Positions 35,864 through 62,129 of a DNA stretch of 64,000 bases are shown here, piece after piece. Below the pieces are notes generated by a model that saw only the letters and a program-made list of their open reading frames with translations, did no database searches and was not told the DNA's origin. Made by a program: the position numbers and the translations under genes. The number at the start of each line of letters is the position of its first letter. Position 1 is the first letter of the stretch. This stretch comes from Desulfoglaeba alkanexedens ALDC (GTDB taxonomy: Bacteria; Desulfobacterota; Syntrophobacteria; Syntrophobacterales; DSM-9756): assembly GCF_005377625.1 (NCBI RefSeq), contig NZ_CP040098.1:372001-436000 (forward strand), given 5' to 3'.

Positions 35864-35901
35864 CCACCTTGTTCCCAAGCTGGAGCTTGGAAGCAAGGTG
35901 G
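35864..35901. repeat. GTTCCCAAGC-type hairpin repeat (35.9 kb copy A)
   Basis: CCACCTTGTTCCCAAGC pairs with GCTTGGAAGCAAGGTGG around a short loop, with one mismatch. A degenerate copy lies about 40 bp away at 35941-35964, so the two form a tandem. Confidence 0.75.
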
Positions 35902-35940
35902 AAATCCTTTACGGCTAGGCGAAGCTGTAGCTTGCAGGCC

Positions 35941-35964
35941 GTTCCCAAGTCAGAGCTTGGCAAC
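35941..35964. repeat. GTTCCCAAGC-type hairpin repeat (35.9 kb copy B)
   Basis: GTTCCCAAGTCAGAGCTTGGCAAC is a degenerate palindrome of the same family, just downstream of copy A. Confidence 0.65.
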
Positions 35965-36146
35965 GAGGGCACAAGCATCCGTGGATACCGACGTTATGGT
36001 GTCGGTGGACATCTCTTTATTAGGATCCTCCCCGTTTGTGGACGTTCGCCTCCATGTCCTTGGAAGCCCCTTCAAGCAGGAACAAGCCTTCGCGCGGTTT
36101 TGGTCTTGACTTCAGAGCTCGATTTGATTACGGTCTGCCCACGCCT

Positions 36147-36342: not shown

Positions 36343-36726
36343 TCTACGTTTCCTGGGGCGGGCCCGTCAACGGACCGCAGCCTTGAACACGGAGGCCGGG
36401 GCTGTGCCGCGATCAGGCGAACCCTCTTCAAACCCATCTTTATGGGTCGTCAGCATCCACATACCGTCAAAGCGTTCTTCTCAAGCGATTCTGGATCTCT
36501 GCTTCATGGCAGTCATGTGTTCAACGTCAATGGGGCGCAGTTAGCGATCGCACGAGATGGAATGAGGCGCCGAAGCGATAAGAGGACGCTGGGCGCAAAT
36601 TTGGATGTCGCCGACAACGAGGGAAATAGGGCCAAACAGCTTGGCATTGGCATATCAACCCGTGGAAAGGTGCGTCAAGGTAGGTGTCGCTTTATGGCGT
36701 AAATTTGGGTGTCGCTTGACAATGCC
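36343..36726. mobile_element. Gene-free region with IS21-like terminal repeats
   Basis: No gene was found. Two similar blocks, GGCGCAAATTTGGATGTCGCC (about 36592-36612) and GGCGTAAATTTGGGTGTCGC (about 36697-36716), look like the multiple terminal repeats of IS21-type elements, here without a transposase. The region ends exactly where the selD leader duplication begins. Confidence 0.45.
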
Positions 36727-36895
36727 GGGGTATCGACAAAACCGATTTCACTTGCCATTCGTATCGAAATTATCGACTGGACAGGACGGATGGCGGACAC
36801 TACCAGAAGATGTATTCCAGGCTGAGCGTTGACCGGATCGCGCCTGATTCGGCATGCAGGCCGGGCGGCGGAACCTGATCGAAGAGGGTTGGGCC
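36727..36895 (+). repeat. Leader of the selD cassette, duplicated at 61674
   Basis: About 169 bp before the zinc-ribbon gene, nearly identical to 61674-61839. Shared blocks include GGGGTATCGACAAAACCGAT, CGTATCGAAATTATC and GGATCGCGCCTGATTCGGCA. Conservation of a non-coding leader in both copies suggests promoter or mRNA regulatory content. No known riboswitch was recognised. Confidence 0.6.
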
Positions 36896-37150
36896 ATGAA
36901 TTTCATTTTCACCTGCCCGGAGGCGGGTAAAATTTTCGAGACGCCGGATTTCACCATCACCGAAAACCATGGTGTAGTGATCGACGCCGACGGCCGGCGG
37001 CGCCTGGAAGCCCGGGTGACCCTGGACGGCCCCTGCCCCTATTGCGGGCAGCGGCACACCTACCGAGCTGACGAGATGATCTGCCCCTTCGAAGCGGTGG
37101 CGGCTCCAGTGGAACGAAAGTGTCAGGTTTCAGAAGAGGAAAATGGATGA
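36896..37150 (+). CDS. Small zinc-ribbon-like protein coupled to selD
   Basis: 84 aa: MNFIFTCPEAGKIFETPDF, then VTLDGPCPYCGQRHTYRADE and ICPFEAV. Four Cys (C7, the CPYC pair, ICP) and one His could bind a metal. The TGA stop overlaps the selD ATG, so the two are translationally coupled. A near-identical copy lies at 61840. The function is unknown; a role in selenium handling is only suggested by position. Confidence 0.75.
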   Translation: MNFIFTCPEAGKIFETPDFTITENHGVVIDADGRRRLEARVTLDGPCPYCGQRHTYRADEMICPFEAVAAPVERKCQVSEEENG

Positions 37151-48254: not shown

Positions 48255-48867
48255 AGAACCGATCATTCGGCGTTACGAGAAAAACCCCATCCTGACCAAG
48301 CATGATGTGCCCTACCCGGTGGAAACGGTGCACAATGCCGGCGTGGTCAAGCTGGGCGGCAAGTATGTCATGCTGTTTCGATCTCACTTGCGCAACGGCC
48401 GGTCGATCATCGGTCTGGCGCAAAGCCGTGACGGCTTACACTTTACGGTCCGGCCGGAGCCGTTCATCACCCCGGCCAAGGCCGGGCCGTTCGCCGAATA
48501 CGAAGCCTTCGGCGTGGAAGATCCGCGCATCTGCCCCATGGAAGGCAGATACCTGATCACCTACTCGGTCTATTCCCGGCACGGCGTCCGGGTGGCCCTG
48601 GCCGGAACCACGGATTTTGAGCGCCTGGACCGGATCGCCCTGATCACCCAGGCGGACTACCGCAACGTGGTCATTTTCCCTGAAAAAATAGGCGGCCGCT
48701 ATGCCCGGCTGGACCGGCCACATTCGGAAATCTCACCGTGGTCCATCTGGATTTCTTATTCGGATGAGATGAGATGTTCCCCTTGTTCCCAAGCCAGAGC
48801 TTGGGAACCAGCGGAATTAGCCCAAATAGATGCGTGGAAACTGCGAAATGTAAGCTTTGGACTCTGA
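48241..48867 (+). pseudogene. GH130 glycosidase/phosphorylase, 3'-truncated
   Basis: It starts ATG 48241 (MAESKEPIIRRYEKNPILT), overlapping the GT4 stop. It continues as a normal GH130 (NAGVVKLGGKYVMLFRSHL, EAFGVEDPRICPMEGRYL, VVIFPEKIGGRYARLDRPHS) up to WISYSDEM at about 48776. It then runs into a GTTCCCAAGC hairpin and a short unrelated tail. Roughly the last 150 residues are gone. It is the reciprocal of the fragment at 46135. Confidence 0.82.
48785..48808. repeat. GTTCCCAAGC-type hairpin repeat (48.8 kb copy)
   Basis: GTTCCCAAGC and GCTTGGGAAC form a perfect 10-bp stem around CAGA. It lies about 8 bp after the last GH130-like codon, at the gene's breakpoint. Confidence 0.8.
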
Positions 48868-55369: not shown

Positions 55370-57061
55370 ATGAACTGGGAATACAAATTGGTTTTCAAGG
55401 ATGATCGATTGGCTGAGCCCACGTTCCAAATGTTGAGCCGGCTTCAGACACTTGCCGGACTCAAATGCACGCAAGAGGCTGTTGAAACTCACGAAGAGGC
55501 CTGTTTCGATACCCCCGACCTGGCCCTCGACGCCTTGGGGCTGGTCTGCTTCGTTCGGAATCACGAGGGCTCCGACAAATATCTGCTGATTGTCGAGCCG
55601 GGGTGCCCGGGCTGCAATGGAAACGACATCCATCTTCACAAAGTATTTTGCACACTCGATGCCGACGCGTATGCCCGGATGACCGATGGACGGTCACCCC
55701 AATGCCTACGCAATATCCTTGAGGGAGCTGTCGATTTGCGGAATATAAGGAAGACGCTCCATCGTCGCGTGTCATGTATTCCTCTTCTGCTCGCAAACGA
55801 CGCCGGAGCAACAGCACGCCTGCATCTTGACCGGATTGAAACCTTTCTTCCTGGTCAAGACGAGCCGAGAACGGTCGACTACGAAATCGGACTCCGATCG
55901 GAAATGGAAAGGTTTCCCGAAGCCGCCATCCTGCAGGACACGCTAAGGAACACCCTCGGCCTTATTCCAGTGAGACGCAGCCGGACCCGCGGCCTTGCAA
56001 CCCCGACACGTTGCCGCAAAGCTTCTTTGGAAAAGCAAAAGGTCATTTTGGACATGGATACGGGTGTTGACGATGCCTTGGCGATCATCCTCGCCATGCG
56101 TTCCCCTGAACTCCAAGTGCTTGGAATCACAGCAAGCAGCGGCAACATCGACGCGAGGCAGGCCCACCGGAACACGAAGGCCGTTCTGGGGTTCCTCGGC
56201 AGGGAACTTGCCCTACCTCCTTCCAGCCTCCCCCCCACGGCTGCGGGGCTTACCGCGACCAGGGAAATCCCGCATGCGGCACACGTCCACGGATCGGACG
56301 GACTTGGCGGGGTCACTATGTCCGATGAAATCCTTCAAATCATCGGCGATCCAGCACCTTCCTCAGAAGACGCCTATACGCTCTTCAAGCGACTCGTACA
56401 AGAACACGAGCCGAAAACCATCACCCTGATTGTTACCGGCCCCCTCACCAATGTCGCTCACTGGATTGAATCAGACCCTGATGCGGTCCAACGCCTCAAG
56501 GAAATCGTGGTCATGGGAGGCGTGTTTTTTGAGTGCGGCAATCGAAGTCCGGTGGCAGAATCCAACATGTATTCCGATCCTGAATCGGCCGGGAAAGTCG
56601 TTGCGTTCTGCCGCCGGCCCGTGCTTCTCTACCCACATGTTTGGCGTGAGACGCTTCCCCTGACATTTGTAGGGCTTGATGTCACGCATCGCGTCACGCT
56701 ACGGCGTGACACCCTGGACCGGTTGAGCGCCGAACGCCCCGGAGACAGAATGATCCGTTTTATCAAGCAATTCACCGCCGACTACATGAACTTCTGCTAT
56801 CGAAACAAGGGATTGGAGGGTTGCTATCTCCACGACCCGCTGGCTGTAGGGTACGTTATCGACCCCTCGTTCTGTCGGGTCGAACGGTATCACGTGGAAG
56901 TTGAAGACCGGGGAAGGGTCGCCCGAGGCATGACCATCGCCGATGTTCGGTCCACACGGATCTTTAAGGAGAGATCCAAAGAGGTCACGTGGGTCTGTGT
57001 CAAGGTGGATGCTTCGAGGTTTGAAAACTTTTTCACAGAAAGAGTCCTGGGACCGTCATGA
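55370..57061 (+). CDS. CYTH-like domain fused to inosine-uridine nucleoside hydrolase
   Basis: 563 aa. The C-terminal half (from about residue 222) is an IunH-type ribohydrolase: KVILDMDTGVDDALAIILAM with the Ca-binding D-x-D-x-x-x-D-D, then LIVTGPLTNVAHWI, IVVMGGVFF and CYLHDPLAVGYVI. The N-terminal about 200 residues look like a CYTH/triphosphate-tunnel domain: MNWEYKLVF with E-x-K, EACFDTPDLAL, and YEIGLRSEMERFP. AAGGAAAG lies before ATG. It is unlinked to neighbours. Confidence 0.78.
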   Translation: MNWEYKLVFKDDRLAEPTFQMLSRLQTLAGLKCTQEAVETHEEACFDTPDLALDALGLVCFVRNHEGSDKYLLIVEPGCPGCNGNDIHLHKVFCTLDADAYARMTDGRSPQCLRNILEGAVDLRNIRKTLHRRVSCIPLLLANDAGATARLHLDRIETFLPGQDEPRTVDYEIGLRSEMERFPEAAILQDTLRNTLGLIPVRRSRTRGLATPTRCRKASLEKQKVILDMDTGVDDALAIILAMRSPELQVLGITASSGNIDARQAHRNTKAVLGFLGRELALPPSSLPPTAAGLTATREIPHAAHVHGSDGLGGVTMSDEILQIIGDPAPSSEDAYTLFKRLVQEHEPKTITLIVTGPLTNVAHWIESDPDAVQRLKEIVVMGGVFFECGNRSPVAESNMYSDPESAGKVVAFCRRPVLLYPHVWRETLPLTFVGLDVTHRVTLRRDTLDRLSAERPGDRMIRFIKQFTADYMNFCYRNKGLEGCYLHDPLAVGYVIDPSFCRVERYHVEVEDRGRVARGMTIADVRSTRIFKERSKEVTWVCVKVDASRFENFFTERVLGPS

Positions 57062-57645: not shown

Positions 57646-57689
57646 TCACCGCCTCATGGAAATCGAAGCTGGAGCTTCTACCCTGTTGT

Positions 57690-57713
57690 GTTCCCAAGCT
57701 GGAGCTAGGGAAC
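57690..57713. repeat. GTTCCCAAGC-type hairpin repeat (57.7 kb copy)
   Basis: GTTCCCAAGCTGGAGCTAGGGAAC, a slightly degenerate palindrome, preceded by GAAGCTGGAGCTTC (57665-57678). It lies exactly where the radical SAM remnant loses similarity. Confidence 0.75.
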
Positions 57714-57714
57714 A

Positions 57715-57993
57715 AGAAGAAAATCGTCACCCTCCTTATCTCCGAACCGCCCCGCCGCCTGCCGATTTCGGCGATTTCGTCGTAGATGGTGGCCATATTG
57801 TTGATGTTCGACTTGATCTTCTCCAGGGGCCGCTTTTGAAACTTCTCGGTCTTGTACACAGCGCAGAACGTACACTTGTTCCATGAACAGTTTTGCGGGT
57901 AATGCACAGCAGTAAGGAATTGCTCCCACCTTTACTGGGCGCCCTCCTGTACACACCTGTTTTAAAGGAATATTCTGAACATACCTGTAGCAT
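57715..57993 (-). pseudogene. Radical SAM protein, frameshifted N-terminal remnant
   Basis: ATG 57993 follows AGGAG and begins MLQVCSEYSFKTGVYRRAPS, then KGGSNSLLLCITR. The homologous reading continues in another frame as NCSWNKCTFCAVYKTEKFQK, then RPLEKIKSNI, with a radical SAM-type cysteine cluster (C-x4-C-x2-C). The shift is at an A-run near 57895. The frame ends at a GTTCCCAAGC hairpin, so most of the enzyme is missing. Confidence 0.7.
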
Positions 57994-61438: not shown

Positions 61439-61673
61439 GGCGGAGAAAGGCATTACCCCATGCAGAACCTGAGCCTTTCACCCGAAAAACCGACGCGGAG
61501 GTGCGCCTTCAAACCGGGCATCTGAGCCCCTCACGCTCCAGGTGGCATCCCTCAACGGGACGTTTGGACCCTCGATCACCCCAAACGGCCCGCTGAACAC
61601 TCGAAGACTCTCCTTTCACGCCCGCTTTTCACCCAAGGACTATCCGCTCCGGGTATTGCTACTTCCTGGTGCT
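61439..61673. other. Gene-free stretch before the selD-leader duplicate
   Basis: 235 bp with no gene, RNA or repeat that I can support. It separates the IS remnant region from the exact left boundary of the duplication. Confidence 0.4.
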
Positions 61674-62129
61674 GGGGTATCGACAAAACCGATTTCAATT
61701 CCCACTCGTATCGAAATTATCAACTGGACAGGGATGATAGCCGACAGTAGAAGACCTACTCCAGGCTACGCGGTAACCGGATCGCGCCTGATTCGGCATG
61801 TAGGTCGGGCGGCAGAACCTGAGCGAAGAGGGTTGGGCCATGAATTTCATTTTCACCTGCTCGGAAACGGGCAAAATTTTCGAGACGCCGGATTTCACCA
61901 TCACCGAAAACCGAGGGGTAGTGATCGACGCCGACGGCTGGCGGCGCCTGGAAGCGCGGGTGACCCTGGACGGCCCCTGCCCCTATTGCGGGCAACGGCA
62001 CACATACCTGGATGACGAGATGATCTGCCCCTTCGAAGCGGTACTGGCTCCGGTGGAACGAAGGTGTGATGTTTCAGAAGAGGAAAATTCATGACGGACG
62101 AAAAACGGCACCTTCGGCTGACCACCACC
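61674..62129 (+). repeat. Second, truncated copy of the selD leader cassette
   Basis: Matches 36727-37185 at high identity over about 456 bp: leader, zinc-ribbon gene, and the first 13 codons of selD. It breaks off after ACCACCACC, five codons before the Sec codon. Both boundaries are sharp. The downstream sequence is unrelated and holds IS21-like repeats. Confidence 0.85.
61840..62094 (+). CDS. Small zinc-ribbon-like protein, second copy
   Basis: 84 aa, about 88% identical to the protein at 36896, with all cysteines kept: MNFIFTCSETGKIFETPDF, then DGPCPYCGQRHTYLDDEMIC. Substitutions are mostly conservative, so it may still be expressed although the selD that followed it is gone. The stop still overlaps an ATG. 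Confidence 0.7.
   Translation: MNFIFTCSETGKIFETPDFTITENRGVVIDADGWRRLEARVTLDGPCPYCGQRHTYLDDEMICPFEAVLAPVERRCDVSEEENS

What the first reader, a model, noticed from the sequence alone, without database searches (positions are those of the whole stretch)
55370..57061. Fusion of a CYTH-like domain to a nucleoside ribohydrolase
The C-terminal half is a clear IunH-type enzyme with the complete calcium motif. The N-terminal 200 residues look like a CYTH/triphosphate-tunnel domain (E-x-K start, FDTPDL segment, acidic strand near YEIGLRSE). I do not know this pairing. Combining triphosphate or nucleotide binding with ribose-base cleavage in one chain suggests a nucleotide-degrading enzyme, possibly for salvage or defence.
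Basis: partly seen in the sequence, partly recalled or inferred. Interest (0 to 1): 0.62.

Follow-up and report, generated by a model that had tools for sequence, protein, structure and literature searches.

The report
CYTH–nucleosidase fusion linked to type-III CRISPR
A rare bacterial protein joins a phosphate-tunnel (CYTH) domain to an enzyme that breaks nucleosides, and some of its nearest relatives sit inside type III CRISPR antiviral operons, which suggests a nucleotide-directed arm of that immunity for which I found no description.

Summary
ORF 55370-57061 is one frame: residues 1-215 fold as a CYTH/triphosphate tunnel (Z 15.8 to YgiF) and 225-552 are an IunH nucleosidase (Pfam 1.8e-76) with its catalytic residues kept. 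Four more genomes carry the pairing in one frame; CYTH passes Pfam's cut-off in three of them. The unexpected part is the neighbourhood. In 2 of 5 fusions the gene lies directly upstream of type III cas genes. Two further genomes found with the CYTH profile hold unfused CYTH genes in type III-B loci, one with a PNP-family phosphorylase gene just before cas10. The window copy itself is an orphan: its genome's two cas10 genes are 0.6 Mb or more away, and its CYTH half has lost conserved residues (EIG for ExE, no TLK lysine). Best reading: a type III CRISPR ancillary nucleosidase with a CYTH ligand-binding domain; the window holds a stray, partly degenerate copy. Activity, ligand and phenotype are untested. 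New variant of a known kind.

The parts
55370..57061 (+). CYTH-IunH fusion gene, 563 aa, ATG start
   Evidence: homologues with the same layout in one frame
55370..56014 (+). CYTH / triphosphate-tunnel-fold domain (residues 1-215), partly degenerate
   Evidence: fold; homologues over the Pfam cut-off; alignments:
55376..55387 (+). WEYK, remnant of the ExExK hallmark (first Glu absent)
   Evidence: hallmark as described in PMC8233210 (passages)
55883..55891 (+). EIG (172-174), where the nine other CYTH sequences aligned have E-[IV]-E
56015..56041 (+). linker; in-frame TTG at 56027 is a possible internal start
   Evidence: read; low pLDDT within residues 206-219
56042..57025 (+). IU_nuc_hydro (IunH) domain, residues 225-552
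56051..56074 (+). DMDTGVDD calcium/ribose motif (228-235)
   Evidence: invariant in the 15 sequences of A4
56558..56566 (+). E397-S-N399, ribose-binding Glu/Asn
   Evidence: E397 and N399 invariant in the 15 sequences of A4; aligned with 1mas
56831..56836 (+). H488-D489, catalytic His / calcium Asp
   Evidence: invariant in the 15 sequences of A4

Best explanation
The protein is a nucleosidase with a CYTH-fold domain in front, belonging to a small family of CYTH proteins that work with type III CRISPR systems. Proposed mechanism: when Cas10 is triggered by phage RNA, the CYTH tunnel binds a polyphosphorylated or nucleotide ligand (a Cas10 product or by-product, or a nucleotide whose level changes in infection) and this controls or feeds the IunH domain, which cleaves base from ribose and so drains the nucleoside/nucleotide pool, starving phage and host. 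Shown here: the two domains in one frame, the CYTH fold (predicted), the intact IunH active site, recurrence in five genomes, and the cas10 neighbourhood of some relatives. Inferred: that the nucleosidase is an effector, that CYTH is the sensing part, and the ligand. For the window copy: an orphan gene, far from its genome's cas10 genes, with a CYTH half that has probably lost catalysis; it may act in trans or be a leftover.
For: Two of 5 fusions sit directly upstream of type III genes. L003 precedes Cas10b/Cmr2-Cmr3-Cmr4, with Cmr5, Cmr6, a CARF-HD protein, Cmr1, a Card1-like CARF nuclease, RT-Cas1, a repeat array and Cas6 further down the contig. L002 precedes a Csm3-like RAMP and a Cas10 gene that match III-A/III-D models. 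A CYTH profile searched without regard to CRISPR in 389 genomes matched 3: L002's own and two more, and both of these are III-B loci. In L053 a PNP_UDP_1 phosphorylase gene (2.4e-38) stands just before cas10. The CYTH of the fusion L042 is 59% identical to the unfused CYTH of L053. L018 joins a receiver-like domain, HD-CE, CYTH and IunH; the CARF protein of the L003 locus has the same HD-CE domain. The window's genome has two Cas10 genes with GGDD, so action in trans is possible. IunH active site intact; the five fused IunH form one clade, 99/99, among 20 rows. Nucleotide-depleting type III effectors are known (CARF-HAD, PMC12715507, passages).
Against: Three of 5 fusions are not seen in a cas locus: the window copy, L018 (14-kb contig with no match to the cas proteins tried) and L042 (3.3-kb contig, cannot be judged). 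No CARF or SAVED domain was found in the chain (Pfam; PADLOC for window, L002 and L018), so a known cyclic-oligoadenylate sensor is lacking; the first 300 aa of L018 are unassigned. CYTH residues are partly lost in the window copy and a strand is missing in L018, which weakens a catalytic role. L003's Cas10 reads GGDE, not GGDD, and L002's AGDD (by eye), so their cyclase activity is not certain. IunH enzymes known to me act on free nucleosides, not NTPs, and the conserved ribose-site residues fit that. The neighbourhood argument rests on four loci.
Confidence: 0.45

Rival explanations
1. Ordinary nucleoside salvage enzyme whose IunH half is controlled or oligomerised by a CYTH domain; its place beside cas genes in some genomes is coincidence or defence-island hitchhiking.
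For: The window copy lies between an ArsP-type permease and an M14 peptidase and transposase, not in a defence locus; L018 lies beside ABC transporter genes (named by eye); the IunH half is better conserved than the CYTH half (54-56% against 31-35% between the window and L002/L003).
Against: Of 7 loci that carry this CYTH family, 4 are type III CRISPR loci, in two kinds of type III; with an assumed 0.5-1% chance per gene of lying near cas10, 4 of the 6 that can be judged is very unlikely (binomial; the chance per gene is my assumption). The family is rare for a housekeeping enzyme: 3 of 395 genomes matched the four-row profile (own genome, L018's genome and one weak separate CYTH), 1 of 17 (L018's genome again), 2 of 85 and 3 of 389 with the five-row profile.
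Confidence: 0.25
2. Clean-up or off-switch enzyme of type III signalling: CYTH removes or binds 5'-triphosphate ends of linear oligoadenylate by-products and IunH removes adenosine or other nucleosides released by ring nucleases and effectors.
For: Directly upstream of type III genes in L002 and L003; the first CYTHs of L052 and L053 keep ExExK, and these and L042 keep the basic strand and ExE; L003's locus also codes for CARF effectors that need switching off.
Against: Nothing here shows oligoadenylate recognition; six of the nine family CYTHs lack the first Glu of ExExK (L042 is cut there).
Confidence: 0.15
3. About the window copy only, and compatible with the others: it is a decaying relic that came with, or escaped from, a type III locus, has lost CYTH function, and persists only as a plain nucleosidase or as junk next to mobile elements.
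For: EIG for ExE and Phe for the first Arg of RxR are seen only in this copy among the CYTHs aligned, and its strand lysine is lost; a DDE transposase gene begins about 2.5 kb downstream; a single-sequence search with its CYTH half found nothing in 58 other relatives or 394 other genomes (the sets overlap).
Against: The 563-codon frame is intact, the IunH active site is intact, and G+C by codon position (62, 44, 62%) has the spread of a coding gene.
Confidence: 0.3

Closest known systems
IunH / IU-nucleoside hydrolases (PF01156; Crithidia IU-NH 1mas, RihA/RihC)
   Same: Fold, DxDxxxDD, and the equivalents of Asn39, Glu166/Asn168, His241/Asp242 (numbering recalled)
   Different: CYTH domain in front; an insertion before the LDxT strand in window, L002 and L003, shorter in L018; type III CRISPR neighbours in two relatives
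CYTH / TTM proteins (PF01928; YgiF, CyaB, ThTPase, SaTTM)
   Same: Tunnel fold; relatives over the Pfam cut-off
   Different: ExExK incomplete; fused to IunH, a partner not among the CYTH fusions named in PMC8233210 (HD hydrolase, exopolyphosphatase, nucleotidyl kinase, CHAD; passage)
CARF7--CARF_CYTH_HD family of PADLOC (CARF proteins)
   Same: CYTH and HD in one family with CARF; the CARF-HD protein of the L003 locus hits this model at 3e-14, behind better hits to CARF models
   Different: No CARF found in our chain; window, L002 and L018 proteins do not hit it
PNP-family ATP nucleosidases (Cap17 of CBASS, Detocs and others)
   Same: N-glycosidic cleavage as an immune output; a PNP_UDP_1 gene is present in the L053 locus
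   Different: IunH is a different family from PNP; cleavage of ATP by IunH is not shown. Cap17 listing seen in PMC10952713 (passages)
CARF-HAD phosphatase (Chp) effectors of type III-A
   Same: Type III accessory that depletes nucleotides (PMC12715507, passages)
   Different: CARF sensor and phosphatase; here CYTH and nucleosidase

Membership tests
IU_nuc_hydro (IunH) | Profile match above the curated cut-off | tested here: met
   258.1 bits against 34.2
IU_nuc_hydro (IunH) | DxDxxxDD calcium motif, Glu/Asn ribose site, HD motif | tested here: met
IU_nuc_hydro (IunH) | Nucleosidase activity | not testable with these tools
   needs an assay
CYTH / TTM | Tunnel fold | tested here: met
   predicted model and structure matches, (model pLDDT 75)
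CYTH / TTM | Pfam CYTH match above cut-off | tested here: not met
   window protein: no match; homologues L002, L003, L042 met
CYTH / TTM | ExExK hallmark | tested here: not met
   NWEYK in the window; also incomplete in L002, L003, L018. PMC8233210 notes a PF01928 cluster that lacks it (passage)
CYTH / TTM | Acidic ExE strand | tested here: not met
   EIG in the window; E-[IV]-E in the nine other CYTHs aligned
Type III CRISPR ancillary effector | Gene next to type III cas genes | tested here: not met
   not for the window copy (Cas10 hits lie elsewhere in the genome); met for L002 and L003
Type III CRISPR ancillary effector | CARF or SAVED sensor domain | tested here: not met
   none found in Pfam or PADLOC scans
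Type III CRISPR ancillary effector | Activation by a Cas10 product | not testable with these tools
   needs an assay
Cap17/Detocs PNP effector | PNP_UDP_1 domain | tested here: not met
   none in the window protein; a separate PNP_UDP_1 gene is in the L053 locus
MoxR-vWA ternary conflict system (L003 locus) | bpMoxR plus vWA partner | tested here: inconclusive
   bpMoxR 24.5 bits, under its 27 cut-off; the neighbour matches DUF2201_N, no vWA model listed

The most novel reading that the evidence does not exclude
Type III CRISPR systems of some Deltaproteobacteria have a nucleosidase arm that is not gated by CARF or SAVED: a CYTH/triphosphate-tunnel domain senses or processes a nucleotide and switches an N-glycosidic enzyme (IunH fused, or PNP encoded beside it) that drains nucleosides or nucleotides. 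The tunnel fold would be a new class of type III signal receptor.
Probability: 0.25. Interest if true: 0.82.

Novelty: new variant of a known kind. Interest (0 to 1): 0.6.

Why it matters
Type III CARF effectors are reported to degrade ssDNA and ssRNA, depolarise membranes, deaminate ATP, cleave NAD+ and dephosphorylate nucleotides (PMC12715507, passages). A nucleosidase with a non-CARF nucleotide-binding domain would add a chemistry and possibly a receptor fold, and it gives a concrete reason to test triphosphates and Cas10 products as ligands of CYTH domains whose role is unknown.

Tried and rejected
Chance motif resemblance: rejected by fold matches and by homologues over the Pfam cut-off. 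Two separate genes or a frame error: rejected, the same frame in five genomes, though an internal TTG start remains possible. A phage or plasmid gene: scans of viral contigs with the whole protein, with alignment A1 and with the L053 CYTH protein gave no relative; plasmids and phages with the L003 CYTH half none; plasmids with the L053 CYTH protein gave one, a Cupriavidus CYTH protein with a CHAD-like remainder (named by eye); plasmids with the second CYTH of L052 none. Plasmid matches to the whole window protein number 331 records, none covering 80% of the query; in the 20 listed the match begins at residue 146 or later, so they are nucleosidases. NYN as an obligate partner: in the L002 and L003 loci at 52% identity, a weak match in L018's genome, none in G000 and G516. 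CRISPR array near the window gene: none found. A PADLOC name for the fusion: none for window, L002 and L018. G323 (L022), E 1.7e-4, is a separate 281-aa CYTH frame beside a PAS-type gene and was left out of the family count.

Print, in the held library only (no preprints, few subscription papers): 'type III CRISPR' with 'nucleoside hydrolase' 0 papers; 'triphosphate tunnel metalloenzyme' with 'nucleoside hydrolase' 0; 'CARF' with 'CYTH domain' 0; 'HD-CE' with 'conflict systems' 0; two of 'nucleoside hydrolase', 'CRISPR', 'triphosphate tunnel' 56, of which 20 listed, none about this by its title; 'type III CRISPR' with 'CYTH' 3, of which I saw passages of PMC10910872 (CYTH in a legend of CARF/SAVED-linked proteins, 'nucleoside hydrolase' 0 times) and PMC8646023 and only the listing of PMC7824862; 'type III CRISPR' with 'nucleoside phosphorylase' 2, passages of PMC10952713 seen, the other listing only; 'CRISPR', 'nucleosidase', 'cyclic oligoadenylate' 2, passages of PMC12715507 seen, the other listing only. 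The CARF classification paper behind the PADLOC name is recalled, not seen.

Full report
What is there. The frame 55370-57061 (+) is open from ATG to stop, 563 aa. Its second half, residues 225-552, is an IU-nucleoside hydrolase at 258 bits, the only match to that family found in this 3.37-Mb genome. The catalytic residues are kept: DMDTGVDD, Asn259, Glu397/Asn399 and His488/Asp489 are invariant in the 15 sequences of alignment A4 (4 fusions and 11 of the 14 unfused loci) and stand opposite the same residues of Crithidia 1mas (residue roles recalled). The first half has no Pfam match of its own.

The first half is a CYTH fold. AlphaFold2 on four homologues gave mean pLDDT 75 and pTM 0.69. The 31 best Foldseek rows are CYTH/TTM proteins (first 2gfg, 1.5e-7), followed by Mediator head subunits from rank 32, and the VIA second look puts YgiF first with Z 15.8, rmsd 3.1 over 192 residues. 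A profile of five CYTHs finds the same two CYTH entries in PDB sequences only weakly (2gfg 0.0041, 3sy3 0.0059). A full-length model on 15 sequences has pLDDT 82.8 and pTM 0.87, and the 50 best Foldseek rows shown are nucleoside hydrolases.

The pairing recurs. A genome scan with the IunH half gave 17 loci; in 3 of 17 the same frame carries the CYTH half (L002, L003, L018). A CYTH profile then matched 2 of 85 genomes of the class of L003's genome, L003's own and a fifth fusion (L041/L042; its 5' end is cut by the contig). The same profile matched 3 of 395 phylum genomes (own, L018's genome, and the weak separate CYTH of G323) and 1 of 17 of the class of L018's genome, that genome itself. CYTH passes Pfam's cut-off in L002, L003 and L042, not in the window protein or L018. 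L018 is a 1390-aa chain with a receiver-like domain (27.8 bits, under its 30.2 cut-off), an HD-CE domain, CYTH by alignment, and IunH. The fused IunH domains form one clade (99/99) among 20 rows, 15 of them unfused; the unfused set is only what one search found plus one neighbour gene, so closer unfused relatives may exist.

Neighbourhood. L003: an AAA gene with a sub-threshold bpMoxR match, a DUF2201_N gene, the fusion, then Cas10b/Cmr2, Cmr3, Cmr4; the rest of the contig has Cmr5, Cmr6, a CARF7/HD-CE protein, Cmr1, a Card1-like CARF nuclease, RT-Cas1, an array whose commonest 20-mer occurs 15 times, Cas6 and an NYN gene. L002: an AAA gene that matches RtcR models over the ATPase only, NYN, the fusion, a 747-aa Csm3-like RAMP, and a gene that matches Cas10 and Cas10d models. 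L018: a separate small CYTH gene upstream and ABC transporter genes downstream (by eye); its genome has Cas10 on another contig. L042: a 3.3-kb contig with what looks like a second IunH gene (by eye). Window: ArsP permease, thioredoxin-like gene, M14 peptidase and a DDE transposase around it; the genome's two Cas10 genes over the cut-off, both with GGDD, lie 2.7 Mb away, or about 0.6 Mb if the contig is a circle; a third hit at 1.80 Mb is under the cut-off.

Unfused relatives. Of 389 genomes of the class of L002's genome, 3 match a five-row CYTH profile: L002's own, G644 and G706. Both new loci code for a 230-235-aa unknown domain joined to a CYTH, then a second CYTH gene, then a 600-617-aa membrane-like protein (by eye), then, after the PNP gene in L053, Cas10b and Cmr3, with Cmr4 and Cmr5 confirmed in L052. 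In L053 the PNP_UDP_1 gene (2.4e-38) overlaps the end of the membrane gene and precedes cas10; L052 has no such gene at that place. The second CYTH of L053 is under the Pfam cut-off (17.7 bits). The CYTH of the L042 fusion is 59% identical to L053's first CYTH. So of 7 loci with this CYTH family, 4 lie in type III CRISPR loci, 2 do not and 1 cannot be judged. A binomial with an assumed chance of 0.5-1% per gene gives P about 1e-8 to 1.5e-7 for 4 of 6; the chance per gene is my assumption, and the loci are not fully independent, as the profile held L002 and L003 and the search was centred on L002's genome.

CYTH residues. L052 and L053 first CYTHs keep ExExK; the window, L002, L003, L018 and the second CYTHs of L052/L053 lack its first Glu. 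The window copy alone has EIG for ExE and Phe for the first Arg of RxR; it has no lysine in the TLK strand, and L018 lacks that strand. The halves evolve unequally: 31-35% for CYTH and 54-56% for IunH between the window and L002/L003. I therefore read CYTH as a binding module in this copy.

Mechanism and limits. The proposal is an ancillary type III nucleosidase with CYTH as ligand module. The precedent is nucleotide depletion by CARF-HAD in type III-A (PMC12715507, passages) and PNP-based ATP nucleosidases in other systems (PMC10952713, passages). PMC10910872 lists CYTH among CARF/SAVED-linked proteins near CRISPR and vWA-MoxR-VMAP systems near type III (passages). No activity, ligand or phenotype is shown here. 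L003's Cas10 reads GGDE and L002's AGDD (by eye), so a nucleotide signal from these two is itself not certain.

Noticed in passing
L052:6091-7506 and L053:5761-7149: A 230-235-aa N-terminal domain without Pfam match (65% identical between the two) precedes the CYTH in type III-B loci; a similar-looking stretch (DWRFT..., by eye) occurs in further genes at L055:8503-9474 and L056:3748-4284.
   Followed up: partly
L052:8234-10036 and L053:7810-9663: 600-617-aa membrane-like protein between the CYTH genes and cas10 (or PNP) in both III-B loci; no Pfam or PADLOC match for the L052 copy.
   Followed up: partly
L018:752-4924: Single chain with receiver-like, HD-CE, CYTH and IunH domains and an unassigned 300-aa N-terminus; a separate CYTH gene lies just upstream.
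   Followed up: partly
L002:1892-2953 and L035:12339-13391: NYN-family proteins, 52% identical, in both cas loci that carry the fusion.
   Followed up: partly
window 36723-37104 and 61670-62048: Long direct repeats (85 and 300 nt, 85% and 91% identical) about 25 kb apart.
   Followed up: no
window 35870-35976, 48784-48820, 57689-57725: Short interspersed repeat, TGTTCCCAAGCTGGAGCTTGG-like, four copies at 68-100%.
   Followed up: no
L042:47-1249 and 1270-1569: On the 3.3-kb contig of the fifth fusion: a second, divergent IunH-like gene convergent with the fusion, and a ClpP-like fragment behind the fusion (both by eye).
   Followed up: no
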